From Eubacterium sp. (lineage in GTDB: Bacteria; Bacillota; Clostridia; Lachnospirales; Lachnospiraceae): 60,530 bases of DNA. Positions 1 to 32,698 of the stretch are shown here, piece by piece. The stretch is taken from the NCBI GenBank assembly GCA_017437905.1, contig JAFRWY010000086.1, forward strand, positions 1-60,530, given 5' to 3'. The position numbers were made by a program, and so were the translations under genes. Below the pieces are notes generated by a model, which saw only the letters and a program-made list of their open reading frames with translations, had not been told where the DNA came from and did no database searches. Each line of letters opens with the position of its first letter. Positions within the stretch are counted from its first letter, which is position 1.

Positions 1-105
1 GGGTACCAGCAGGGAATGAACGGGTACCAGCAGGGAATGAACGGCTATCAGCAGGGAATGAACGGGTACCAGCAGGGAATGAACAACTACCAGCAGCAGG
101 GGATG
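1..105 (+). repeat. 21-bp coding tandem repeat
   Basis: Units of 21 bp starting at 1, 22, 43 and 64, with decayed copies after 85, encode MNGYQQG-like heptapeptides. Copies differ mostly at silent positions (gggtaccag versus ggctatcag). The array may extend upstream of the window. Confidence 0.9.
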
Positions 106-801
106 AACAATAACCGGCAGATGGGATCGAACGGTTATCCGCAGCAGGGCGGTACGAACGGCTATCAGCAGCAGATGGGATCAAACGGATATTCCCAGGG
201 CCCGGCCAACGGATACGGACAGAACAACCGGATGGGAGGACTTCGTCCCGCACCGGGAAATGGCATGTATCATCCGAATCGGAAGAGAAATATCATCATC
301 GGTGTGATCTCCGGTGTTGTGGTGCTTACAACCGTACTGCTGATTATTTTACTCTCCGGTTCCAATGGAGCTGCTACGCAGGAGGCGGCGGTTAAAAATT
401 ATATCGAGGCCTGCATGGATGGAAATACAGATAAACTGCTCGATGCAATGTTTCCATCGAAAATCCAGAAGGGAATCTCCGAAAATACCAAGAGGAATCT
501 GCGGGAGGAGATGTCAGAGTGTAATGGTCAGATCAGGGATCTTGAAATTGAATTCAGCTCCAGCGAATACTATACCACCAGCCTGCGCTCGGATATTCGT
601 AAAATTACCAAATACAATGGTGATGATATTATGATAGAGTCAATTGAGATGTATGAGGTTTCTTTTGAAGTTATGGGAAAATGGTACCGACCGACCAGTT
701 ACTTTTCCGGATCCGTTAAGAATCGCACATCATGGGATGATTATTCCTTCTACGTTATATGCTACAAGATGGACGGAAGGTGGTACTGTATAAGGGATTG
801 A
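1..801 (+). CDS. Membrane protein with Gln/Asn/Gly-rich repeat tail, 5' end outside window
   Basis: The frame is open from base 1, so the start lies upstream. The visible 266 residues begin with about 80 residues rich in Gly, Asn, Gln and Tyr, built on 7-residue copies of MNGYQQG. A basic patch (NRKRN) follows, then one membrane helix (IIIGVISGVVVLTTVLLII) and an outer domain of about 140 residues. The basic patch predicts the repeat tail inside the cell and the last domain outside. The start of the outer part (AAVKNYIEACMDGN) resembles NTF2-like DUF4878-type domains; this is a weak inference. The membrane helix nearly matches that of the next gene, so the two may be relatives. No function is known to me. 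Confidence 0.85.
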   Translation, partial: GYQQGMNGYQQGMNGYQQGMNGYQQGMNNYQQQGMNNNRQMGSNGYPQQGGTNGYQQQMGSNGYSQGPANGYGQNNRMGGLRPAPGNGMYHPNRKRNIIIGVISGVVVLTTVLLIILLSGSNGAATQEAAVKNYIEACMDGNTDKLLDAMFPSKIQKGISENTKRNLREEMSECNGQIRDLEIEFSSSEYYTTSLRSDIRKITKYNGDDIMIESIEMYEVSFEVMGKWYRPTSYFSGSVKNRTSWDDYSFYVICYKMDGRWYCIRD

Positions 802-847
802 CGTGGAGTGCAAATAGCAGTTGTTCCAAGGAGGAGGAGAATGCCTT

Positions 848-2104
848 ATGAAGTGTTATGCATGTGGAAAAGAAATTGGAGTGAATTACGGATACTGCCC
901 ACACTGTGGGACGATCTTCGGTGATGCAGCAGGCGGTGCACAGCCATCACAGCCAGCGCAGCCAGAGCCCCGTCATGACCAGTGGAACCAGCCACCGAAG
1001 CCTGAGCAGGGTCAGTGGAACCAGCCGCCGAAGCCTGAGCAGGGTCAGTGGGGGCAGCCACCGAAGCCTGAGCAGGGTCAGTGGAACCAGCCGCCGAAGC
1101 CTGAACAGGACCAGTGGGGTCAGCAGCCACAGCGTGATCAGTGGGATCAGCGACCCAATCCGCAGAATCCATGGAGCCGGCAACCGCAGCAGGACCGGTG
1201 GGATCAACCGGCATCGCAGCGTGACCAATGGGGTCAGCAGCCGAATCCGCAGAATCCCTGGAGCCAGCAGCCGCAGCATGACCAGTGGGGTCAGCCGAAG
1301 CCTGAGCAGGATCAGTGGGGTCAGCCTCAGGGATATGACCGTAACGCGTGGAATTCGCCGGACGGCGCTCTCCCGAATCAGGGACCGGACGGCGGAAATC
1401 CGGAGACAAGGCCTGAGAAAAAATCCAGGAAAGGTCTGATCATCGGAATCATTTCCGGGGTCGTTGTTCTGGCAGGAGCAGTTGTGCTGCTTTTCGTACT
1501 GGGCGTTTTCTCGTCCCAAAACGGAAAATACTCCACGCAGGGGAGTGACGGAAGCAAAGTTTCGCTTGAAATTGACGGTGAATCCGGAACACTGCGTGTC
1601 GGGGATGAGATTTCGATCCCGGTGACGGTAACCTTCGGTGACGAAAATGTAACACTGAAAAGTGATACCGGAAGCGTAACCGCTGCATACGACAAGAGCA
1701 ATAAAACCATCACCCTGCAGTCTGCACAGGTATCTGAACTGGGTGCTGTATCCGGATCTCTGGATGGAACGTATACCTTTACTTCCGCGAAAATGGCAGG
1801 GGTGACCATGGATGTTGCTACCATGTCGGAGGCAATGAAGCAGATGGGATACGATTATGATATCAGCGAATTTAAGATCACGATCAGCGGCGAAAGTGCT
1901 ACCATAAATCTGATGGGACAAGGCGGAACCTGCAGTGTGAGTGTCAGTGGAAACAGGATCACATTTTCCGAATACGGAAGAGATTTTGAAGGGGAATATG
2001 ACAAGAACAAGGGTACCATATCCATCGAACAATCCGGAGCATCCCTGATATTCTCCAAGTCCGGTTTATCGGACGGTTCAAGTTATGTCCTCGTAAAGGA
2101 ATGA
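848..2104 (+). CDS. Zinc-ribbon membrane protein with Pro/Gln/Trp repeat linker
   Basis: The start is placed at ATG 848, 8 bases after AGGAG (835-839); an in-frame TTG at 821 overlaps the ribosome site and is less likely. The 418-residue protein opens with a zinc ribbon (CYACG ... CPHCG). About 150 residues of tandem repeats follow, based on PKPEQGQWNQP and later NPQNPWSQQPQ. Then come a basic patch (RPEKKSRK), one membrane helix (LIIGIISGVVVLAGAVVLL) and a beta-rich outer domain of about 190 residues. Topology should be N-in, C-out. Its helix is close to that of the upstream gene. Zinc-ribbon plus single-helix proteins are common in Clostridia, but the function of this one is unknown. The adjacent vWA gene suggests a shared complex (inference). 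Confidence 0.9.
   Translation: MKCYACGKEIGVNYGYCPHCGTIFGDAAGGAQPSQPAQPEPRHDQWNQPPKPEQGQWNQPPKPEQGQWGQPPKPEQGQWNQPPKPEQDQWGQQPQRDQWDQRPNPQNPWSRQPQQDRWDQPASQRDQWGQQPNPQNPWSQQPQHDQWGQPKPEQDQWGQPQGYDRNAWNSPDGALPNQGPDGGNPETRPEKKSRKGLIIGIISGVVVLAGAVVLLFVLGVFSSQNGKYSTQGSDGSKVSLEIDGESGTLRVGDEISIPVTVTFGDENVTLKSDTGSVTAAYDKSNKTITLQSAQVSELGAVSGSLDGTYTFTSAKMAGVTMDVATMSEAMKQMGYDYDISEFKITISGESATINLMGQGGTCSVSVSGNRITFSEYGRDFEGEYDKNKGTISIEQSGASLIFSKSGLSDGSSYVLVKE
975..1125 (+). repeat. 33-bp coding tandem repeat
   Basis: Near-identical 33-bp units encode 11 residues (PKPEQGQWNQP), with variation at the residue after Trp (Asn or Gly). More decayed copies continue to about 1330. Confidence 0.85.
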
Positions 2105-2143
2105 TCCTGATCGTTTGATTCAATATCTGACCCGGAGGTGGAT

Positions 2144-5100
2144 ATGTACTGGAAGTTATTCATCGTTTTTGCATGCTTTGTCTTGGTGGATCTGCTGGGA
2201 CATAAGCTTTTTAAGATCAAAAGAAAAGCATTTGAATGGATCCTGCTCCTGACGGTTGTCGCGGGAACGGTTGTTTTTTCCGTGTTCACGATCCGGAGCT
2301 TTGGGAAAAACGGTGGTTCGGAGGATTTTGATCTGTACCGTGCTTACCGTTACATCTCCGACGGAGACGGAGATGTTGCAGTCAAAATCCTGGATCAGAT
2401 GGAACGGTCCGGTGCGGATAAGGATTCCATTTATGCCATGCGTGCTTTTGCGGCCGCCGGTTCCGGAGATTATCTGAACGGATATTTTAAGGCGGTTCAG
2501 ATCCTGGAGCGGGATGATCTGGATGAAACATTACGGAAGAGCATGATGAAGCTCCGTGATATCTGCAGGGAGCAGATCGGTCTCGGCGGAGCGGTGCTTA
2601 CGGCAGATGCATATGATTATGACTTTGATCAGTATGTGACGGCGATCACCGCCGATCCGGGAAGTCAGACTTCCACAGGTCCGGAGAATTCGGCTTCCTA
2701 CGAAGTTGACCAGCTGATGAAGGAGTATGTTGGAACGCTGGATTTCTCCGCGGAGGAGAAGGAGTTCTCTGACAGATATACCATCGACCGCTGGGTTGAA
2801 GGGAAAAGTCCGGAGACGATGGATATCTACCGGCTGGAGCAGTTTGAGGATAAGTACGGAACCAGTGAAGATATCCTGAAGCTGAAGAGCAAATACTATG
2901 TGGATATACATGATTATCTGTCGGCCAAGGAAGCGGCCAAGGAACTGATCAACTTCGCGGATACTCCGGCGAATACGATCATCCTTACGGATATCATTGC
3001 GGATGAGGTCCATAGCAGAGAAGAGGACGTGGTCCGTTATTACGAAGGAAAACTGGGAAAAGACGTCTGGGGAGGCGATGACAGTTCCTATGATCCTTAC
3101 GGAACGGAATACGGCGGATATGATAACTCCCGGTCGGACGGATGGCTGGACGAGGAGGATGAAGAGATCAGTGCGCTGCTGAAGGCGGCGGATCAGAAGT
3201 TTCGGGAGGCAAATGAAAAAGAACGGAACTATGGCAGCGATGCGGCGAAGGATATCGAGGAACTGAGAGAGGCCGGCCGTGAACTTGTGCGGAAAGCTAA
3301 CCGGATCGAAGCAGAACGTGCGATCAACTTCATTCTGGCAAGAGACCCGGACGGAACCGACGATACGGGAATCTACCGGCTGGAGATGGCAAAGCTTTAT
3401 GTTGCAACCGGCAATAAGGAGAAGGCAGAGGAGTATATCTACAAGCTGATCACATCCGGTCAGGCAGTCAGAGAGGATTCCCTGATCAGGGACGAACTTG
3501 AGAAGGTGATCGCAGAGTATAAAATGATGGACAGCGAAACCGGTACTCCCGGCTTCCTTCGTGCCATCACACAACTGATCACAAGGCACAGTCAGAACAT
3601 CGTTGAGAACAGAGAAGGAACGATCAACGGAGAATTCAGCGATTACATGGAGGAGACTCTGGTCTACTCCAAGATCTACGTCCATGTGAGCCGGGTGGAT
3701 GCAACAGCGTATCCGGAGATCACCGCTTATGTGAATATCAGCGGTAAGAAGAAGGATTACGAGGCGGAAGAACTGGTCAGCGATTTTAAGAAGGAAGACT
3801 TTACACTGGTGGATACCGAGTATCAGATCAGTGATTTCGAACTGGTTACAAATGAAGCGGCAAAGCAGATCAATATCGCACTTGTTATGGACAAGAGCGG
3901 AAGTATGGACGGCAGTGCGCTGGATAATGCAAAATCCGCCGCCAATGCTCTTGTGGATCAGATGAATACCGATACACAGAAGATATCCGTAGTTGCCTAT
4001 GATTCCTCGGCTGCCAGCTACGCGGATCTAACCTCTTCAAGAGAGGAACTGCGTACTGCGATCGGCGGAATATACGCCAGCGGAGGAACAAATATCGGAT
4101 CCGGGCTGACACTCGGAATGGAACAGTTATCCGGGGCTTCCGGAATGGGTGCGGTGATCCTTATGTCTGACGGTCACGACGGTGGTGAGTGGGAGACGAT
4201 CGCAGCATGCATAGAACAGGCGAAGGCAACAGGCGTAAGCATATATACCGTTTGTTTCGGTTCGGACGCGGATGTGGATCTTATGAGCCGGATCGCCGAG
4301 TCCAGCGGCGGCAAGATGATCGTGGCAGATTCCGAGAATCTGGCCAATATCTACCTTACGCTTCAGAAATATATCGTAAACAATTACTGCTTCAAGTATA
4401 CGGTAACTGCGAATCCGGAGAGGAATTCCCGGAACCTTGAAGTGATCCTGCCGCAGTACAGCACCTATGAGGTTCGGGATTACCATGTGGGAAATGCGGA
4501 TGCGGAATACATCGGTGAAGAGGCTGCAAATGACGGAACCATTTTCGGGATCGGTCAGAAGACCATCGGTATCGCGACCATCGCACCCTCAAGCATTTCC
4601 GCAAAGGCGGCGCAGGAGGGCGTAACGCTGGAACTTACCGGAAACGGTCTGGAGGATATCAGCAGTATCGAGATCGGCTCCGTGAAGCTGTCGGATATTA
4701 AAGCCGGAGAAGACGGGAAGATCACCGCGGTGCTGAAGGGTACCGTTCCGGTAGGAAGCCATGATATCCGGATCAGCACGAATGACGGACGGTATGCACA
4801 CAGCAGGATCCGGTTCCGTGTATTTGACGGAGGAACTACAAAATCCGTAAAGATCGGACATACGCTGATCATGGCGGATGAGATCGGCAGGGCCGGCGAT
4901 AATGAACTGGTGGCCAGCGGAAATGTACTGATCAATAACTTCCTGCATTTCAGCGGGGATCTCAGCATTTACTCGTATGATATTCCTGCGAATATAGAGA
5001 ATACGCCTATGCTGGATCTGGGACAGTACGGAACGCTGGGTGGCAACGGAAGACTGTATCTGAACTGCGGACAGGATGCTGAGACTACGGGATTTGCGGG

Positions 5101-6253
5101 AGAGAACCTGAGCGGTGACTTCGTGATCCTGGATGGTGCCGTATCGATCGAAGTATCCGAGGACCATGCGTATTTCAATCTGAGTGGGGGTGACGAGCTG
5201 ATACCGGGTGTCCTGAAAAATGCAACCGGAGAAGTAACGCTCTATCCCGGATATCTGAAATGCAAGGTGACAAGGGCAGATCTTTCTCCGATTCTGGATT
5301 CGATCCGTCAGTCTCTTACCGGAGGAACACTCCGCTATACGGAACAGGCCATGGCGGAAATGGATCTTACGCTCATCGCAACCTATGGTTCGGTTGAATT
5401 CGGCGGCTCCTATCAATGCGGGGATCAGGATACTGTCTTCGAGATCAGCAGGGGTCTAAAGATCCGGGGCTTCAGCGGAACCATGAATTCTCTCGATAAG
5501 GAGAAGCGGATCTGGAGTCTGAATACGAAGATCGAACAGGAGTCCATGGGAGCGGATCAGGATTCGGAAGCAACGGAAGCCAGAGTATGGGCTCTTTCCA
5601 TCGGTTCGAAGGGGCTCACGGCGGATACGGTGGAACTGTCCGTGGGAACGGAAGCATATTCCTTCTACGATACGATTTACATGAAGAATGCAACCGGAAA
5701 GATCGACGGTCTTTCTTCCCGGGCTGCAGATGCGGGAGACGTGGTCATTTCCGCGAATATCGAACTGGAAATGAAGCCTGCGGATAAGGACGCCTGCGTG
5801 GTTTATAAGAGCCTTAAGGACGTGCTCGGAACAGGAAAGTCGGATGCTGCGGAGCTGAGGGTCAACCTTTCGGATTTCCGGATCGATGCGAAGGCGGCCA
5901 TGGATGTGCCGGGATCTGAAGGTGCGGAAGTACAGATCGGCATAGACGGAAGCAGTCTGAGGATCGAGAGGAAGGGTGATTATGATATACAGTTCCTGGG
6001 CAGTCATATGACAGGAAAAGGCGAGGTGGTCTATACATCGGAACGGGTATCTGACGGCTGGTTCCGGAAGTATAAGGTCAGAACGGATCAGGGAAGCCTG
6101 ACAGGACCGGGAGTCAGCGCAAAGCATGACGGAGCCTACAGTTATGAGTTCTGGAACGAGCCGGGACAGCAGGACGGATATGCGTGGCTGAAGTACGGGA
6201 AGACCTACAGGGGTGTATATTATAATTATGACGGTGCCCCGGATCTGAGATAG
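2144..6253 (+). CDS. Giant membrane-anchored von Willebrand A domain protein
   Basis: ATG 2144 is chosen because GGAGG (2134-2138) sits 5 bases upstream; GTG 2138 overlaps it. The 1369-residue protein has two N-terminal membrane helices (about 4-20 and 31-48) joined by a basic loop (HKLFKIKRKAFE), so nearly all of the rest should be outside. Residues of about 60-480 are helical and repeat-like, possibly TPR-type. A vWA domain follows with a full metal site: DKSGSMDG near 582, Thr in ASGGTNIGSG near 645, and MSDGHDGGE near 674. The last 550 residues are beta-rich. Intact MIDAS residues predict metal-dependent ligand binding. It lies 39 bases after the zinc-ribbon gene and is probably in one operon with it. 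I know no close named relative. Confidence 0.92.
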   Translation: MYWKLFIVFACFVLVDLLGHKLFKIKRKAFEWILLLTVVAGTVVFSVFTIRSFGKNGGSEDFDLYRAYRYISDGDGDVAVKILDQMERSGADKDSIYAMRAFAAAGSGDYLNGYFKAVQILERDDLDETLRKSMMKLRDICREQIGLGGAVLTADAYDYDFDQYVTAITADPGSQTSTGPENSASYEVDQLMKEYVGTLDFSAEEKEFSDRYTIDRWVEGKSPETMDIYRLEQFEDKYGTSEDILKLKSKYYVDIHDYLSAKEAAKELINFADTPANTIILTDIIADEVHSREEDVVRYYEGKLGKDVWGGDDSSYDPYGTEYGGYDNSRSDGWLDEEDEEISALLKAADQKFREANEKERNYGSDAAKDIEELREAGRELVRKANRIEAERAINFILARDPDGTDDTGIYRLEMAKLYVATGNKEKAEEYIYKLITSGQAVREDSLIRDELEKVIAEYKMMDSETGTPGFLRAITQLITRHSQNIVENREGTINGEFSDYMEETLVYSKIYVHVSRVDATAYPEITAYVNISGKKKDYEAEELVSDFKKEDFTLVDTEYQISDFELVTNEAAKQINIALVMDKSGSMDGSALDNAKSAANALVDQMNTDTQKISVVAYDSSAASYADLTSSREELRTAIGGIYASGGTNIGSGLTLGMEQLSGASGMGAVILMSDGHDGGEWETIAACIEQAKATGVSIYTVCFGSDADVDLMSRIAESSGGKMIVADSENLANIYLTLQKYIVNNYCFKYTVTANPERNSRNLEVILPQYSTYEVRDYHVGNADAEYIGEEAANDGTIFGIGQKTIGIATIAPSSISAKAAQEGVTLELTGNGLEDISSIEIGSVKLSDIKAGEDGKITAVLKGTVPVGSHDIRISTNDGRYAHSRIRFRVFDGGTTKSVKIGHTLIMADEIGRAGDNELVASGNVLINNFLHFSGDLSIYSYDIPANIENTPMLDLGQYGTLGGNGRLYLNCGQDAETTGFAGENLSGDFVILDGAVSIEVSEDHAYFNLSGGDELIPGVLKNATGEVTLYPGYLKCKVTRADLSPILDSIRQSLTGGTLRYTEQAMAEMDLTLIATYGSVEFGGSYQCGDQDTVFEISRGLKIRGFSGTMNSLDKEKRIWSLNTKIEQESMGADQDSEATEARVWALSIGSKGLTADTVELSVGTEAYSFYDTIYMKNATGKIDGLSSRAADAGDVVISANIELEMKPADKDACVVYKSLKDVLGTGKSDAAELRVNLSDFRIDAKAAMDVPGSEGAEVQIGIDGSSLRIERKGDYDIQFLGSHMTGKGEVVYTSERVSDGWFRKYKVRTDQGSLTGPGVSAKHDGAYSYEFWNEPGQQDGYAWLKYGKTYRGVYYNYDGAPDLR

Positions 6254-6336
6254 CAGCAAGTCCGGCAGCTGACAGAGCAGGCCGGAAAACGTCTGTTGTC
6301 AGGAAACCGAGAATAAGCAGGGATGAGGATCTGTAA

Positions 6337-7860
6337 ATGAATAGAAGACTTTTTAAATGGCTCTTTCTTCTGGCACTGATGGCCGGGGGCCTCTTCGCGG
6401 TTCCCTCAGGGGTGTACGCAGAACCGGTCACCACTACGGTTGATGTGGAGGAAGGCTATGAGAACGGAGCAATCTTTCATATAACATGGGCTGACAAGAC
6501 CGTCGCGGCAGACATCGAACTGACTGCACCGGACGGGACAGTCTACAGTGCGAAGAAGACGCCGGATGCGGTGAGCGAAATGGAAGGCGGTGTATATATC
6601 ACTGTCCCCAATGCACAGGCAGGAACCTGGACGGTTACCGGTGCGGAGAATGCAGGCAGTCTGTACGCAGAATGCGGAAAACTTCCTTCGGAACTGGCGA
6701 TCAGCAGCTTTGTTGTATCCGTCAGCGGACAGGAAGGGACAGCCACTCTGTCGCTTGCCAATGCATCGGAGGATGCAGATGTCTGGATCTATGCGGATAC
6801 GGACAGTGACGGATACGATGGAGTGGAAGTGGCAAATAGCAGCAGCTATGACTCCGCCAAAGGAACATATCAGCTGGACCTGTCCCGTCTTACGCAGGGA
6901 GAATATCATTTCTTTGCGAATGTAAAGGACGGGAAATCCTGGACCAGGGGTTATATGGACGGTTATGTCAGTTACCAGGGTGTGGCCACTGCGACAAAAC
7001 TGCAGGTAGGCGCAGGCTCCAATGGAAATGACGGATACTATGCGCGCTGGAATGCGCCGGATGTGGAAGATGCGGAGCGTATCACCTATACGGTTCAGGT
7101 TTATGATGCGGACCATAACCGGATCGACGCCATGAAACTGGAGGGAATCCTTTCCTTCGAAGGAACCTTTGCTTCTGATCAGGATAAGGTACTGATCGCC
7201 GTAACCTATCCAGACAGCGGATATGATCTGGTTGAGGTGAACAAGGGAACTAAGATCAACGCGGAGCTGATCTTCGGAATTGAAGCCGGTGTTACAAACC
7301 AGAGCTTTGTGGATGTGGAGATCACATCCGGCGGAAAGGTCAGTGTCGAGGGATATGTCAATGACGAGAAGAAACTGTCAGGGGAAGAAGCAGGAACCTA
7401 CCGAGTCATGCTTGAGAACGGAATGAACCGGATCCTGTTCCGGCTGGTGGATGAAAGCGGTACCATGAAGGATTATGAGACCAGGATCCAGCTGGATTCC
7501 GAGCCGCCGCAGCTGGCGGTGACGGAGGATCTGAACGGGACGGTGACTCAGGGGGACTATGTATATATCAGCGGATACACGGAAACCGGTGCAACGCTCA
7601 AGTTGAATGACAGGGAGATCACACAGGAGAACGGATTCTTCAATGAGAAGTTCATGCTTTCCGGCGGGGATAATACCATCGTCCTCTCGGCGGTCGATCC
7701 TGCCGGAAATGAGTCCAGATACCAGGCTGTTGTAAGGAAGGGAAGTGTAGAGGAAGAGAAGGATATCCTCAGCTGGATCATTGCGGGCAGTGTATTCCTT
7801 GTTCTTCTGGTGATCTATATCATCGTCTTCGTCAAAGGGAACAGGAGGAAAAAAGCATGA
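6337..7860 (+). CDS. Secreted Ig-like repeat protein with C-terminal membrane anchor
   Basis: The 507-residue product starts with a signal peptide (MNRRLFKWLFLLALMAGG..., likely cut after GVYA). The middle is beta-rich; two stretches near 350-440 (PPQLAVTEDLNGTV and SAVDPAGNESRYQA) look like bacterial Ig or bacterial-adhesion repeats. It ends with one membrane helix (about 480-500) and a short basic tail (KGNRRKKA). The main body should therefore be outside and held in the membrane. Its TGA overlaps the next ATG in ATGA at 7857, a sign of coupled translation. It probably works with the vWA protein upstream (inference from context only). Confidence 0.88.
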   Translation: MNRRLFKWLFLLALMAGGLFAVPSGVYAEPVTTTVDVEEGYENGAIFHITWADKTVAADIELTAPDGTVYSAKKTPDAVSEMEGGVYITVPNAQAGTWTVTGAENAGSLYAECGKLPSELAISSFVVSVSGQEGTATLSLANASEDADVWIYADTDSDGYDGVEVANSSSYDSAKGTYQLDLSRLTQGEYHFFANVKDGKSWTRGYMDGYVSYQGVATATKLQVGAGSNGNDGYYARWNAPDVEDAERITYTVQVYDADHNRIDAMKLEGILSFEGTFASDQDKVLIAVTYPDSGYDLVEVNKGTKINAELIFGIEAGVTNQSFVDVEITSGGKVSVEGYVNDEKKLSGEEAGTYRVMLENGMNRILFRLVDESGTMKDYETRIQLDSEPPQLAVTEDLNGTVTQGDYVYISGYTETGATLKLNDREITQENGFFNEKFMLSGGDNTIVLSAVDPAGNESRYQAVVRKGSVEEEKDILSWIIAGSVFLVLLVIYIIVFVKGNRRKKA

Positions 7861-9263
7861 TCGTACTTTTAATCATCACGATCCTTCTTTCGCTTGTTTC
7901 CTGCGGATTCATGTGGTACGGATTTCACGTGATGAATCTGGTTCAGGGATACGGACTCCTGACCATGAACACGGAGGAAGGATATAAACTCGTAACGAAT
8001 TACAAGACATGGCAGCTGATCGGCTGGATCGCGGGAGCGGTGCTTCTTGTCTGTCTGATCGTTCTGGCGTTCCTTTTGAAGAAGATCCTGGCACCGAAGC
8101 TGGCGGCGGCAAAGGAACGAAGGGTAGAGAAGAAGAAACTACGGGAAGAGGCGATGCAGCAGGCAATGGCAAATGCCGGTGCGGATCAGGGATATGGGGT
8201 GCAGATGTATGATCCAAACCTGGCTCAGCAGCAGATGCAGGCCCGGATGAATATGCAGGGTCAGGCACAGATCCGCGTAAATCAGCCGGGTATGCAGGGT
8301 CAGCAGATGAATGCCCAGGCCCGTCAGATGCAGAATCAGGCGAATGCCCAGATGCAGCAGATGCAGAACCAGGCGAATATGCAGGCCCGGCAGGTGCAGC
8401 AGATGCAGGGGCAGGCAGAGATCCGGGTAAACCAGCCGGGTATGCAGGTGCAGCAGATGCAGCAGATGCAGAACCAGGCGAATGCCCAGGCCCGTCAGAT
8501 GCAGAACCAGATGAATGCACAGGCACAGCAGATGCAGAATCAGGCAAATATGCAGGCGCAGCAGATGCAGGGCCAGCAGATGCAGAATCAGGCAAGCACT
8601 CAGGCGCAGCAGATGCAGAACCAGGCAAATGCCCAGGCCCGGCAGGCCTATCAGCAGATGCGTGCGCAGCAGATGCAGGGCCAGATCCACGTAAACCAGC
8701 CGGGTATGCAGGCCCGTCAGATGCAGAATCAGGCAAGTGCCCAGGCGCAGCAGATGCAGAACCAGGCAAGTGCCCAGGCGCAGCAGATGCAGAATCAGGC
8801 GAATGCCCAGGCTCAGCAGGCGTATCAGCAAATGCGTGCACAGCAGATGCAGGGCCGGGCAGAGATCCGTGTAAACCAGCCGGGTATGCAGGGTCAGCAG
8901 ATGCAGAATCAGGCAAATGCCCAGGCCCAGCAGGCCTATCAGCAGATGCGTGCCCGTCAGATGCAGCAGGCCCGTGCCCAGCAGATGCAGAATCAGGCAA
9001 ATGCACAGTCACAACAGCAGGCCCGTCAGATGAAGAACCAGGCAAATATGCTGGCACAGCAACAGGCCCGGGCGCAGCAGCTGACACAGGCGCAGCAGCA
9101 GCGTAAATTACAACTGCAGGCACAGCAACAACAACTGAAACAACAGCAGCTGCAGGCGCATCAGCAACAGCAACAGCAAAAACAGCAGCAACTACAGGCC
9201 CGACAGCAACAGGGACAGCAGTCTCAGCAGGGCCGTCCGCCCCAGTCACCGGGGCAACATTAA
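7857..9263 (+). CDS. Two-helix membrane protein with long Gln/Met-rich cytoplasmic tail
   Basis: Translation overlaps the previous gene by 4 bases. The 468-residue protein has membrane helices at about 1-24 and 52-78. A strongly basic stretch follows (AKERRVEKKKLREE), then some 370 residues of Gln, Met, Ala and Asn repeats built on QQMQNQANAQA, ending in near-pure Gln runs. Positive charges after helix 2 place the tail in the cytoplasm. Three proteins in this operon thus put low-complexity Gln-rich tails on the inner face. Such tails can self-associate, but that is inference. No enzymatic domain is visible. Confidence 0.88.
   Translation: MIVLLIITILLSLVSCGFMWYGFHVMNLVQGYGLLTMNTEEGYKLVTNYKTWQLIGWIAGAVLLVCLIVLAFLLKKILAPKLAAAKERRVEKKKLREEAMQQAMANAGADQGYGVQMYDPNLAQQQMQARMNMQGQAQIRVNQPGMQGQQMNAQARQMQNQANAQMQQMQNQANMQARQVQQMQGQAEIRVNQPGMQVQQMQQMQNQANAQARQMQNQMNAQAQQMQNQANMQAQQMQGQQMQNQASTQAQQMQNQANAQARQAYQQMRAQQMQGQIHVNQPGMQARQMQNQASAQAQQMQNQASAQAQQMQNQANAQAQQAYQQMRAQQMQGRAEIRVNQPGMQGQQMQNQANAQAQQAYQQMRARQMQQARAQQMQNQANAQSQQQARQMKNQANMLAQQQARAQQLTQAQQQRKLQLQAQQQQLKQQQLQAHQQQQQQKQQQLQARQQQGQQSQQGRPPQSPGQH
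8222..9060 (+). repeat. Degenerate coding tandem repeats, Gln/Met-rich
   Basis: Units of about 33 bp encode QQMQNQANAQA, interleaved with rarer units encoding IRVNQPGMQ. The last part (9060-9225) is CAG/CAA-rich. The period is a multiple of three, so changes in copy number keep the frame. Confidence 0.85.
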
Positions 9264-9366: not shown

Positions 9367-9663
9367 ATGACAATCAATAAGGAACAGAACGGTAGCACTC
9401 TGACAGTTTCAATCGAGGGACGTCTTGACACAACGACAGCACCGGAGCTTGAGCAGGAACTGAAGGCAGCTCTGAATGGTGTGACTGAACTTGTGATCGA
9501 CCTCGGTAAGCTGGATTATATCTCATCTGCAGGACTTCGTGTTCTCCTCTGGGCTCAGAAGACCATGAATCAGCAGGGATCCATGAAGGTGACCAATGTT
9601 CAGGAAGTGGTAAGTGAGGTATTTGAGGTGACCGGTTTTGCGGACATCCTTACGATCGAATAA
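9367..9663 (+). CDS. STAS-domain protein, SpoIIAA/RsbV-type anti-anti-sigma factor
   Basis: This 98-residue protein is a single STAS domain. The phosphorylation loop DYISSAGLRVLL is intact; in SpoIIAA and RsbV the Ser before AGLR is phosphorylated by a partner kinase. The N-terminal pattern GRLDTTTAPELEQEL is typical. The family binds a switch kinase/anti-sigma protein to free a sigma factor. No RsbW/SpoIIAB kinase or PP2C phosphatase gene lies in this window, so its partner must be elsewhere. AAGGAGG sits upstream of the ATG. It has its own promoter and terminator, so it appears to be a one-gene unit. Confidence 0.93.
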   Translation: MTINKEQNGSTLTVSIEGRLDTTTAPELEQELKAALNGVTELVIDLGKLDYISSAGLRVLLWAQKTMNQQGSMKVTNVQEVVSEVFEVTGFADILTIE

Positions 9664-9674
9664 TCAGGGGACGT

Positions 9675-9720
9675 AAGACACAACTGGCGTGTTCACACGT
9701 CGGTTGTGTCTTTCTTTATT
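9675..9720 (+). terminator. Rho-independent terminator after the STAS gene
   Basis: A perfect 10-bp stem (9675-9684 with 9703-9712) encloses a smaller CGTG/CACG stem. It is followed by TCTTTATT. Confidence 0.85.
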
Positions 9721-15017: not shown

Positions 15018-15473
15018 TTGGGGGATAAATCAGCGAAGCTGTCAACTGAGGAATTATGGATGCGACTTTTCAGATCTGCCTCCGTCGGGGATTATCTGGA
15101 GCATACAGGTGATGCCTGTGAAATGCCTGCATTTTCCGAATATATATCGCAGCTGTGCAGGGAACGAAATGAAAAGCCGGAAAGCATCATAAAAAGGAGC
15201 AATCTGGATTCCTCCTATGGACACCGGCTTTTTTCAGGTGCACGAAATCCCTCCCGGGACACGGTTCTTCAGCTTGCCTTTGGCTTCGGGATGGATACGG
15301 ATGATGCGCAGCAGCTTCTGAAGATAGCCCGTGTTACCGCGTTACATCCCCGCGTCAAAAGAGATGCCGTCATCGCATATTGTCTGCATCACCGGATAAA
15401 TGTGACGGAAACGCAGATGGTGCTTTATGATCACAATCTGCCGCTTTTGGGGGTCAGACGTAATGAAGGATGA
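15018..15473 (+). CDS. HTH-type protein paired with receptor kinase
   Basis: TTG 15018 is chosen because GGAGGAG (15005-15011) sits 6 bases upstream; ATG 14991 has no such site. The 151-residue protein has a central helix-turn-helix-like part (ISQLCRERNEKPESIIKRSN, then GARNPSRDTVLQLAFGFGMD) and a conserved tail (LHPRVKRDAVIAYCLHH). Its stop lies 11 bases past the kinase ATG, so translation is coupled. I recall the same two-gene arrangement in other Lachnospiraceae. A role as substrate or regulator of the kinase is inference. Confidence 0.85.
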   Translation: MGDKSAKLSTEELWMRLFRSASVGDYLEHTGDACEMPAFSEYISQLCRERNEKPESIIKRSNLDSSYGHRLFSGARNPSRDTVLQLAFGFGMDTDDAQQLLKIARVTALHPRVKRDAVIAYCLHHRINVTETQMVLYDHNLPLLGVRRNEG

Positions 15474-16845
15474 TGCTCTTCTGCAATCCATACTGGAAAC
15501 ATATGATGATTCGGTTTATCCGGATGGATTTGCATCGGAATATGATATTATGGAATGCTTATCCGATCAAAACGGGATATGCACACTTCTTGTGCAGAAT
15601 AAAAACGAAGAAATCTGCATAGCGAAGTGTTATGACAAGTCCAAATGGAGGATATCCGACAATCGCGCGGTTCTGCAAAGCCTTGACCATGACGGCCTGC
15701 CGAGGTTTATTACTGAATTTGAAAGCGATACCATGACCGTAACGGTGAGGGAATACATCGAAGGGGTCCCTCTCAGCCGGTATGCGGAGGAAAATGAGCT
15801 GCACGAACAGGAAATCGTGGGAATATGCGTACGCATATGCGATATTCTCAGATACCTGCACCATAGAGACGAGCCGATCATCCACCGTGATATAAAGCCA
15901 CAGAATATTATTGTCTGCTCAGACGGGAGTGTATCGCTGATTGATTTTGATATAGCCCGTATCTACCGGCGTGGAAATGAGACAGACACCACATTCTTCG
16001 GGACGCCGGCCTACGCGCCGCCGGAGCAGTACGGTTTTTCGCAGACGGACGCACGGACGGACATCTATTCCCTGGGTATTCTGCTGCGCTGGCTGCTGAC
16101 CGGCAGCACAAAGGAGAATAAAAATGTCAGGGTCTATCGGCCGCTCGCAAAAATCATCAGAAAATGTACCGGCTTTGATCCCAAGGATCGTTTTACCGAC
16201 GTTTCGAGGTTAAAAAAGGCTCTCCTGCAGGCGAATCCCCGAACCCAGGGACTGCGCATGACTGCCATATCCTTTGGCGCCCTGCTTGCGGTAGGATTGT
16301 TGATCTTTGCGGGAGTCATGATCTACCGGACTGCTACCTACACGCCCTTCACCGCTGACGCCATCCCGGCATATCAGTCCGATGAGGAGAGGATTGCCGA
16401 TGCCGTAGCCTTCATGAAGGACAGATACGGTTCGGATATGTTCGATGAAAAGGACGATGTCGCTACGGTAGGAGATCTCCGCGCTGCGATGATCGAGCTG
16501 TACGGACTTGACCGCGAGTATGTGTATGGCATCAATACGGACATGCCAAGGGAGAGTGACGAATTCTTCATGCCCTGGGGATGGGATGACGGGCAGACCG
16601 TTGACCGGGATATTGCGATCTATGCAGCGGTCAAGGTACACGATCCTTCCATTGTCGCGGACTGGTCAGGCATTAAGGATGATAACGGCTATTACCCGGG
16701 TGTCCGTGTGGCGGTGGGCTTTGCGGAGGAAACAGGCATACTGACCGGAGTAAACCGTCCGAGTGATATTTCGATGGGGGAATTGGCGTTGATCCTTGCG
16801 AACTCGGACAGGGTGTTTGACAAAGCGAAAGGCAAGGAGGAATAA
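15463..16845 (+). CDS. Membrane serine/threonine protein kinase with outer SLH-like domain
   Basis: A 460-residue protein. The cytoplasmic kinase domain (about 1-265) has the ATP-site Lys in ICIAKCY, catalytic loop HRDIKPQN, metal loop DFD in place of DFG, and GTPAYAPPEQYG in place of the APE segment. No clear glycine-rich loop is seen. One helix follows (about 272-293), then an outer domain of about 165 residues containing YYPGVRVAVGFAEETGILTG, which resembles S-layer homology repeats. It is therefore a receptor-type kinase that may sense the cell wall. It is translated together with the HTH gene. Confidence 0.92.
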   Translation: MKDDALLQSILETYDDSVYPDGFASEYDIMECLSDQNGICTLLVQNKNEEICIAKCYDKSKWRISDNRAVLQSLDHDGLPRFITEFESDTMTVTVREYIEGVPLSRYAEENELHEQEIVGICVRICDILRYLHHRDEPIIHRDIKPQNIIVCSDGSVSLIDFDIARIYRRGNETDTTFFGTPAYAPPEQYGFSQTDARTDIYSLGILLRWLLTGSTKENKNVRVYRPLAKIIRKCTGFDPKDRFTDVSRLKKALLQANPRTQGLRMTAISFGALLAVGLLIFAGVMIYRTATYTPFTADAIPAYQSDEERIADAVAFMKDRYGSDMFDEKDDVATVGDLRAAMIELYGLDREYVYGINTDMPRESDEFFMPWGWDDGQTVDRDIAIYAAVKVHDPSIVADWSGIKDDNGYYPGVRVAVGFAEETGILTGVNRPSDISMGELALILANSDRVFDKAKGKEE

Positions 16846-31216: not shown

Positions 31217-32698
31217 ATGATAACGAACGACCAGGGCATCGTAAGCCTGAAACATAAAATACTTGAAGGGGTTGCGCGTCTGGCATGGAATGACAACCTG
31301 ACGGAGGAAGCAAAGGATGCGCTGGTGTATCAGCTGATCCCGGGTCCCATCGCGCAGTATCGGTGCTGCATCTACAAGGAGCGTGAGATCGTGCGGCAGC
31401 GGATCCGTCTGGCGGAAGGACTCTGTCCCACGGCAGATCCGGATCGGCAGTCGGATAATGTGATCCAGATGATTAGTCCGGCCTGTGAGGAGTGTCCCAT
31501 TTCCTCGTATACCGTGACCGACAACTGCCGGCTCTGCGTGGGCAAGCCCTGCCAGAGCTCCTGCAACTTCGGAGCGATCTCCATCGGCCATCACCGTTCC
31601 CATATCGATCCCTCCAAATGTAAGGAGTGCGGGAAATGTGCGGAGGCCTGTCCTTACTCGGCCATCGCGCATCTGGAGCGTCCATGTAAGAAGGCCTGTC
31701 CGGCAGGGGCCATCACTTACGATGAGTATGGGATCTGCAGGATCGATGAATCGAAGTGCGTTCAGTGCGGACACTGTATCCATGCGTGCCCCTTCGGAGC
31801 CATTTCCGCAAAATCGTATTTAGTTGACATAATCCGAGAGATAAAAGCCGGGAAGAAGGTCATCGCCATGTGTGCGCCGGCTACGGAGGGCCAGTTCGGA
31901 GCGGACATTTCCATGGCATCCGTTCGTGCCGCGCTGCAAAAGATGGGTTTTGCGGACATGGTGGAGGTGGGTCTCGGCGGAGACATGACGGCGGCCTACG
32001 AATCCAGGGAGTGGGCGGAGGCACTGGAGACAGGGCGGAAGATGACCACCTCCTGCTGCCCTGCATTTATTAATCTGCTCCGGAAGCAGTTCCCGCAGCA
32101 GTTCGAGGAGAACAAATCCGAGATCGTGTCACCCATGTGCGCGGTCTCCAGGTATCTGAAAGCCATGAATCCCGGGTGTGTTACGGTGTTTATCGGGCCC
32201 TGTGTGGCGAAGAAGGCGGAATCGCAGGATCCGTCAGTGCCGGATAACGCGGATTACGTCATGACCTACGGCGAGTTCCGGGCGCTGCTTCGGTCGAAGG
32301 AGGTGGAGATGGAGCCGGTTGAGGAGGGTTACCAGGAGGCTACCGTCTTCGGCAAGCGTTTCGCGGCCAGCGGCGGAGTGGCAAATGCGGTGATGGAATG
32401 CATGCAGGAGCGCGGCGTGGATACTTCCCGGATCAGGCTCCGCAAATGTGCGGGTCCGAAAGACTGTATCCAGGCGGTGACGCTGCTGAAGTTCGGTAAG
32501 CTGCCGGAGGATTTTATCGAAGGTATGTACTGTCCCGGGGGCTGTGTCGGCGGACCCTCGAAGCATAAGGCGGAAAATGAGATCATGCGTGCCCGGGAGG
32601 GCCTGCTACAGAAGGCGGAGGACCGGAAGGTGCTGGAGAATCTTGAGAAGTATCCCATGGACAGATTCTCCATGTACCGCGACGGGAGGATGGACTGA
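31217..32698 (+). CDS. [FeFe] hydrogenase, group-B-like, monomeric with ferredoxin domain
   Basis: A 493-residue cytosolic iron-sulfur enzyme. Several cysteine-rich motifs lie in the N-terminal 200 residues, including CKECGKCAEACPYSA and CVQCGHCIHACPFGA, enough for at least two 4Fe-4S clusters. The H-cluster motifs are TSCCPAF near 279, GPCVAKKAE near 328 and MYCPGGCVGGP near 437. The TSCCPAF form and the domain order fit group B rather than the NADH-linked A type. It is expected to couple ferredoxin to H2, though group B enzymes are little studied. It may be read through from the ABC importer operon, as no terminator is seen between. Confidence 0.9.
   Translation: MITNDQGIVSLKHKILEGVARLAWNDNLTEEAKDALVYQLIPGPIAQYRCCIYKEREIVRQRIRLAEGLCPTADPDRQSDNVIQMISPACEECPISSYTVTDNCRLCVGKPCQSSCNFGAISIGHHRSHIDPSKCKECGKCAEACPYSAIAHLERPCKKACPAGAITYDEYGICRIDESKCVQCGHCIHACPFGAISAKSYLVDIIREIKAGKKVIAMCAPATEGQFGADISMASVRAALQKMGFADMVEVGLGGDMTAAYESREWAEALETGRKMTTSCCPAFINLLRKQFPQQFEENKSEIVSPMCAVSRYLKAMNPGCVTVFIGPCVAKKAESQDPSVPDNADYVMTYGEFRALLRSKEVEMEPVEEGYQEATVFGKRFAASGGVANAVMECMQERGVDTSRIRLRKCAGPKDCIQAVTLLKFGKLPEDFIEGMYCPGGCVGGPSKHKAENEIMRAREGLLQKAEDRKVLENLEKYPMDRFSMYRDGRMD

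What the first reader, a model, noticed from the sequence alone, without database searches (positions are those of the whole stretch)
1..9263. Five-gene membrane operon joining an outer vWA giant with three Gln-rich cytoplasmic tails
Same-strand, closely spaced genes encode: two single-helix proteins with Gln/Asn or Pro/Gln/Trp repeat tails predicted inside, a 1369-residue protein with intact MIDAS vWA domain outside, an Ig-like anchored protein, and a two-helix protein with a 370-residue Gln/Met-rich tail inside. One layout recurs: a cytoplasmic low-complexity tail with a folded domain across the membrane. The tails could co-assemble into an inner scaffold that clusters the outer vWA adhesive or sensing parts. 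I recall no described system with this set.
Basis: partly seen in the sequence, partly recalled or inferred. Interest (0 to 1): 0.78.

Follow-up and report, generated by a model that had tools for sequence, protein, structure and literature searches.

The report
Clostridial vWA envelope module, swappable tails
Three neighbouring genes in this bacterium probably encode a membrane complex with a large outer sensing or sticking protein; the set recurs in related bacteria, sometimes inside protein-secretion gene clusters, with a different inner tail from lineage to lineage.

Summary
The core is three genes: a vWA giant (P3), an Ig-like anchored protein (P4) and a two-helix protein (P5). P3 relatives were found in 37 genomes with eight family labels of one class; in 27 of 27 loci where P4 was found it lies directly 3' of P3. 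The Gln-rich tail is not conserved: of 15 readable separate P5 tails, 9 end in a zinc ribbon and 2 are Gln-rich (window and Eubacterium ruminantium); in 15 other loci P4 itself carries a P5-like extension, 6 of them ending in a zinc ribbon. P1 and P2 belong to families found across the genus, mostly without known P3. In 9 of 37 loci a Ser/Thr kinase lies within 5 kb of P3 (0.7 expected), and in 4 the module lies beside EssC and WXG100 genes of type VII secretion (T7SS). Best reading: an envelope complex with an exchangeable cytoplasmic docking tail, here in a stand-alone operon. The Gln-tail scaffold is not supported; a conserved membrane module is.

The parts
1..801 (+). P1 (5' end cut by the contig end): Gly/Gln/Asn repeat tail, one helix, outer domain; neighbour, not core
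   Evidence: relatives of its helix and outer part in 33 of 61 genus genomes at E 1e-3
848..2104 (+). P2: CxxC-CxxC N-terminus (possible zinc ribbon), Pro/Gln/Trp repeats, one helix, outer domain; neighbour, not core
   Evidence: family spread; a zinc-ribbon, Gln/Pro-linker, one-helix gene sits directly before P3 in L042
2138..6253 (+). P3: vWA giant, two N-terminal helices, outer domains (core)
3872..4348 (+). vWA domain of P3 with complete metal-site residues
   Evidence: PF00092, E 2.3e-21; invariant residues
6337..7860 (+). P4: signal-peptide-like start, Ig-like outer part, C-terminal helix (core)
   Evidence: Glucodextran_B E 1.7e-10; 42% identical to E. ruminantium
7857..9263 (+). P5: two helices with a short outer loop, then a Gln/Met-rich tail (core)
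   Evidence: a profile of 13 other P5 proteins finds it at E 2.2e-6 among 672 ORFs
8154..9260 (+). Gln/Met-rich tail of P5, the variable part
   Evidence: 41% Gln, tandem repeats; replaced in relatives
9367..9663 (+). STAS-domain (anti-sigma factor antagonist-like) gene, last gene before the terminator-like site
   Evidence: STAS E 2.9e-17, TIGR00377 E 2e-22; no BLAST match at E 1e-6 among the other ORFs of the fetched loci searched
9675..9712 (+). terminator-like hairpin, 17 pairs, then a T-rich stretch

Best explanation
P3, P4 and P5 form one complex in the cell membrane. P3 presents its vWA domain and other outer domains outside; P4 anchors by one helix and P5 by two, joined by a short outer loop. 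P5's cytoplasmic tail is an exchangeable docking arm: in many relatives it carries a zinc ribbon, in kinase-linked relatives it probably serves a kinase/phosphatase/FHA circuit, and in this lineage it has become a Gln/Met-rich repeat. An outer event (ligand, wall or neighbour contact, possibly metal-dependent) would be passed to, or held by, cytoplasmic partners. Shown: conserved gene order, homology of P5, tail replacement, kinase and T7SS neighbourhoods of relatives, and a two-helix extension of P4 in many loci. Inferred: that this extension is a P4-P5 fusion, complex formation, topology, signal direction and the role of the tail.
For: P4 directly 3' of P3 in 27 of 27 loci where P4 was found, of 37 (gaps -65 to 109 bp, same strand). 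Order P3-P4-P5 in 9 of 9 loci with P4 and a separate P5; 4-bp P4/P5 overlap in 5 of those 9. In 15 loci P4 is longer and ends in further helices (two more in 14, one in L044), 6 with a terminal zinc ribbon like P5; these 15 lie on one side of a branch of the P3 tree (100/100). P5 homology holds when window and E. ruminantium are left out of the profile (E 2.2e-6). A kinase within 5 kb of P3 in 9 of 37 genomes, 0.73 expected, P about 2e-8. EssC and WXG100 genes near P3, with a YukD match in two, at 4 loci.
Against: The P4 extension resembles P5 by layout; profile matches to P5 are weak (best L050 E 0.0033, L040 0.82 and 0.096 with two profiles), so the fusion is not shown by sequence. In 7 of 37 loci P3 and P5 stand without P4 beside them, and in 2 (L047, L049) no P5 was found; P5 lies 5' of P3 in L058 and L062. 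The window operon has no kinase, phosphatase or FHA gene; its kinase-like ORF (15427-16845) is about 9 kb from P3, beyond the terminator-like site. P3 is patchy: 22 of 397 sampled genomes of the family.
Confidence: 0.5

Rival explanations
1. One reading: the Gln/Asn-rich tails of P1, P2 and P5 co-assemble into an inner scaffold that clusters outer vWA proteins.
For: Three low-complexity tails in one operon; E. ruminantium P5 also has a Gln/Met tail.
Against: Only 2 of 15 readable separate P5 tails are Gln-rich; P1 and P2 are absent beside P3 in E. ruminantium and their families occur in genomes where P3 was not found.
Confidence: 0.1
2. A stand-alone surface adhesin operon: P3 is a metal-dependent adhesin held by P4 and P5, with no signalling role.
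For: The P3 profile matches vWA domains of CLCA, ITIH and the fimbrial protein Mfa5; Ig-like P4; patchy distribution; no kinase match at the 15 loci with extended P4 in the stretches fetched.
Against: No LPxTG-type motif in P3 or P4 and no wall-binding Pfam match, though membrane anchoring does not exclude an adhesin; kinase, FHA and T7SS context of relatives.
Confidence: 0.22
3. The module is a T7SS accessory that works in trans with a T7SS encoded elsewhere in this genome.
For: Relatives lie beside T7SS genes at 4 of 37 loci; the window's genome has WXG100 matches on contigs C82 and C55, the second below the family cut-off.
Against: 21 of 37 genomes with P3 have no WXG100 match at E 1e-3, E. 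ruminantium among them; no EssC or WXG100 was recognised among the window's ORFs.
Confidence: 0.12

Closest known systems
T7SS variants T7SSe and T7SSj (PMC11217815; abstract, sections 9 and 14 and found passages read; supplements not seen)
   Same: Relatives of P3/P5 lie among EssC with FHA, WXG100, YukD, membrane kinase, PP2C and DUF6382-FHA genes
   Different: 'von Willebrand' occurs twice in its text: once for TscE of T7SSc, a cytoplasmic protein, and once in the reference list; 'zinc' does not occur. The window locus has no T7SS genes
TsdI/TseI of T7SSd/e (PMC11217815, section 9)
   Same: Like P4: signal peptide, Ig-like domains, C-terminal helix
   Different: Far larger (1654 aa in O. 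uli); sequences not compared here
BatA/BatB vWA membrane proteins (names from NCBIfam NF047508 on relatives, and PDB 4jdu; operon features recalled)
   Same: Membrane-anchored outer vWA domain
   Different: Similarity within the vWA domain only; no MoxR- or DUF58-type match in the ten window proteins scanned
Zinc-ribbon single-pass proteins (TcaA-like; recalled)
   Same: P2 layout: CxxC pairs, low-complexity linker, helix, outer domain
   Different: No Pfam match in the P2 outer domain

Membership tests
Type VII secretion system | EssC/EccC ATPase and WXG100 protein encoded with it | tested here: not met
   No WXG100 match on the window contig; no EssC recognised by eye among the window ORFs. 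Met at 4 of 37 related loci: G430, G793, G083, G1034
vWA proteins with metal site | DxSxS, Thr and Asp metal-site residues in a vWA domain (recalled) | tested here: met
   PF00092 E 6.2e-20; five residues invariant in the window and 7 relatives
Bat-type operon | MoxR ATPase and DUF58 protein beside BatA/BatB (recalled) | tested here: not met
   no such match in the ten window proteins scanned
vWA-kinase-phosphatase triads (TerY-P type, recalled) | kinase and PP2C genes in the same unit | tested here: not met
   absent from the window operon; kinase plus PP2C at related loci: L065 by Pfam, L061 and L062 with PP2C by motif only
P3-P4-P5 module (described here) | P4 directly 3' of P3, then P5 | tested here: met
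   window and 8 further loci with P4 and separate P5
Gln-rich co-assembling scaffold | tail conserved as Gln/Asn-rich in homologues | tested here: not met
   2 of 15 readable separate P5 tails
Zinc-ribbon proteins (P2) | match to a zinc-ribbon model over its cut-off | tested here: inconclusive
   15 bits against a 25-bit cut-off; two CxxC pairs present

The most novel reading that the evidence does not exclude
P3-P4-P5 is an undescribed transmembrane coupling unit of Clostridia that has been built into several machines (kinase-controlled T7SS clusters, at least one Tad-like cluster, and stand-alone operons): the outer vWA complex gates or senses the envelope, and the exchangeable P5 tail decides which cytoplasmic partner is engaged.
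Probability: 0.3. Interest if true: 0.72.

Novelty: new variant of a known kind. Interest (0 to 1): 0.5.

Why it matters
If right, a conserved membrane module of unknown function links outer vWA proteins with cytoplasmic signalling in Clostridia, and its presence beside T7SS genes in some species gives T7SS researchers a candidate component to test. It also shows how a striking low-complexity tail can mislead: the conserved part is the short two-helix core, and the tail is swapped between lineages.

Tried and rejected
Gln-tail scaffold: rejected as the main reading because the tail is not conserved. P1/P2 as core parts: rejected because their families occur in many genus genomes in which P3 was not found. 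Limits: many P2 matches cover only its low-complexity linker and are not counted as homology. Of the 37 genus genomes in both, P2 outer-domain matches (query from about residue 297) are in 11, and of these only the window's own genome is known to carry P3; but the single-protein search missed G022, found later by profile, and 24 of the 61 genus genomes were not, so absence of P3 is not proven.

Defence system: PADLOC gave one weak match for the operon's six proteins, in the P2 low-complexity part and helix (E 5e-4). The kinase ORF at 15427-16845 as part of the system: it lies about 9 kb from P3, so a 10-kb rule would count it (10 of 37, 1.2 expected); I left it out because of the terminator-like site at 9675-9712 and unrelated genes between. 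My first motif scan missed 3 of 9 kinases, so I repeated the count with a profile made from eight of those kinases. L039 has a partial kinase match (E 1.2e-14) cut by its contig end and is not in the 9. Matches of vWA only (132 bits or less) were not counted as P3; those counted score over 200 bits, and five further loci came. L041 and L043 were fetched and not used as P3 loci. WXG100 presence in genomes with short P3 (7 of 9) against the rest (9 of 28), P 0.024, used groups chosen after seeing the data.
Full report
What is there. The window is a whole contig of a 3.09-Mb draft genome, so gene P1 is cut at its 5' end. Five + strand ORFs follow each other, then a STAS gene and a terminator-like hairpin at 9675-9712 (the number of such sites is close to that in shuffled sequence, so only its 17-pair stem and its place argue for it). 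P3 has a vWA domain with complete metal-site residues. The profile of P3 and relatives also matches, at E about 6e-5, a cyclodextrin glycosyltransferase stretch, which I take for an IPT/TIG-like domain (recalled). The region between the P3 helices and the vWA domain looks helical but has no Pfam match. P4 matches Glucodextran_B. P5 has only weak, sub-threshold Pfam matches and none in NCBIfam.

Relatives. A search of 61 genomes with P3 found one relative matching over most of its length, in G027; the other 10 matches outside the window's genome were to the vWA region and its flank. The genome-contig scan found Eubacterium ruminantium FB3002, with a contig of the same length as that of G027 (206,766 bases), so I take them to be the same; the species is listed in class Clostridia. 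There P3, P4 and P5 stand in the same order with the same 4-bp P4/P5 overlap, after a hydrogenase gene and before an ORF that I read as rpoB, without P1 or P2; identities are 38, 42 and 39%, the last inflated by the repeats. A P4 profile over 392 genomes of the order and a P3 profile over 397 genomes of the family and 391 of the class followed. P3 relatives over 200 bits are in 22 of 397 and 11 of 391 (the window's genome is in both); with G027, G083, G285, G342 and G420 this makes 37 genomes, with family labels f1, f5, f19, f31, f48, f66, f83 and f87. A sample of 398 genomes of the phylum gave only the window's own at E 1e-50.

Gene order. In the 37 loci P4 is of normal length in 12, longer with further helices in 15, absent beside P3 in 7 and unreadable at contig ends in 3. 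P5 is separate in 16, replaced by the P4 extension in 15, not found in 2 and unreadable in 4 (my tally). Where P4 exists (27) it is directly 3' of P3 on the same strand. The P4 extension has two more helices in 14 and one in L044 by the hydropathy threshold used; its likeness to P5 is one of layout. A tree of the vWA region of 34 of the 37 (3 lacked the motif used for cropping) has all 15 extended-P4 loci on one side and the 11 labelled kinase-linked on the other; the window pairs with E. ruminantium (100/99) on the latter side. Of those 11, L039 has a kinase cut by its contig end and L073 shows none, so 9 are full matches.

The tail. A profile of 13 P5 proteins without the window and E. ruminantium finds their P5 at E 2.2e-6 and 5.2e-7 among 672 ORFs. 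The 15 better matches are all P5 entries, 13 of them in the profile; the next one below is a one-helix protein at E 0.0081. So helices and loop are conserved while the tail is not. Of 15 readable separate tails, 9 end in a zinc ribbon, 2 are Gln-rich and 4 are short, absent or acidic (L037, L063, L064, L066). Of 15 extended P4 proteins, 6 end in a zinc ribbon, and the rest have short or other tails, such as Asn/Tyr-rich in L051. Zinc ribbons here are CxxC-CxxC motif matches. L071 and L072 are nearly identical and count twice. In L046/L107 acidic repeats lead to a zinc ribbon, which suggests that linker plus ribbon is the general form and that the window lineage kept only a linker; this is inference.

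Neighbours. By a kinase profile, full kinase matches lie within 5 kb of P3 in 9 of 37 genomes (G083, G430, G449, G479, G513, G793, G985, G1034, G1068), 0.73 expected from the number of kinases per genome, P about 2e-8; within 10 kb, the window's own ORF makes it 10 against 1.2 expected. None of the 15 extended-P4 loci shows one in the stretch fetched; stretches differ in length and some end at contig ends. PP2C is present by Pfam in L065 and by motif in L061 and L062; FHA proteins by Pfam in L061, L062, L065 and L072; TPR-LRR or TPR-RCC1 proteins in L038, L058, L061, L062, L064, L065 and L071. In four genomes EssC and WXG100 genes lie near P3, mostly on one strand: G430 (EssC with FHA, two genes between it and P3; YukD), G793 (YukD, EssC, WXG100, then vWA-FHA, kinase, PP2C, TPR-LRR, P3, P4, P5), G083 and G1034 (EssC with FHA). 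Published T7SS variants e and j hold such kinase, phosphatase and DUF6382-FHA parts (PMC11217815; abstract, sections 9 and 14, and passages). At L061/L076 genes that look like Tad pilus genes precede the cluster, judged by eye.

P1 and P2. P1-like sequences were found in 33 of 61 and P2-like matches in 37 of 61 genus genomes, mostly without known P3. Zinc-ribbon proteins stand next to or near P3 at other loci (L042, L046, L047, L058, L071, L072, L074 by motif; Pfam-supported in L042, L046 and L071). P2 may belong to a recurring kind of neighbour, but P1 and P2 are not fixed parts.

In print. Searches for DUF6382 and for combinations of vWA, zinc ribbon, kinase, T7SS and organism names gave nothing that, by its listing, describes this set; only PMC11217815 was opened. 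The library holds open-licence papers only, so this is weak evidence.

Verdict. A conserved three-protein membrane module with an exchangeable inner tail, here in a stand-alone operon. No function is shown.

Noticed in passing
window 15427-16845: Ser/Thr kinase-like ORF with one helix, 36 and 31% identical to the kinases beside P3 in L062 and L064; about 9 kb from P3 and outside the operon
   Followed up: partly
window 31217-32698; L017 5289-6767; L060 2977-4425: A monomeric [FeFe] hydrogenase gene (TIGR04105) stands directly before P3 in L017 and two ORFs before it in L060, but 22 kb downstream of the module in the window
   Followed up: partly
L037 5249-9484 and L040 10107-14090: P3 is split into two ORFs in these two genomes; real break or draft error not resolved
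   Followed up: no
[quoted passage not shown]
   Followed up: partly
L064 6384-6968: P5 tail made of Glu-rich repeats with Thr-x-x-hydrophobic motifs, of the kind FHA domains bind (motif recalled)
   Followed up: no
G000:C114 23763-34381: A P1-like sequence lies near three kinase-domain matches elsewhere in the window's genome
   Followed up: no
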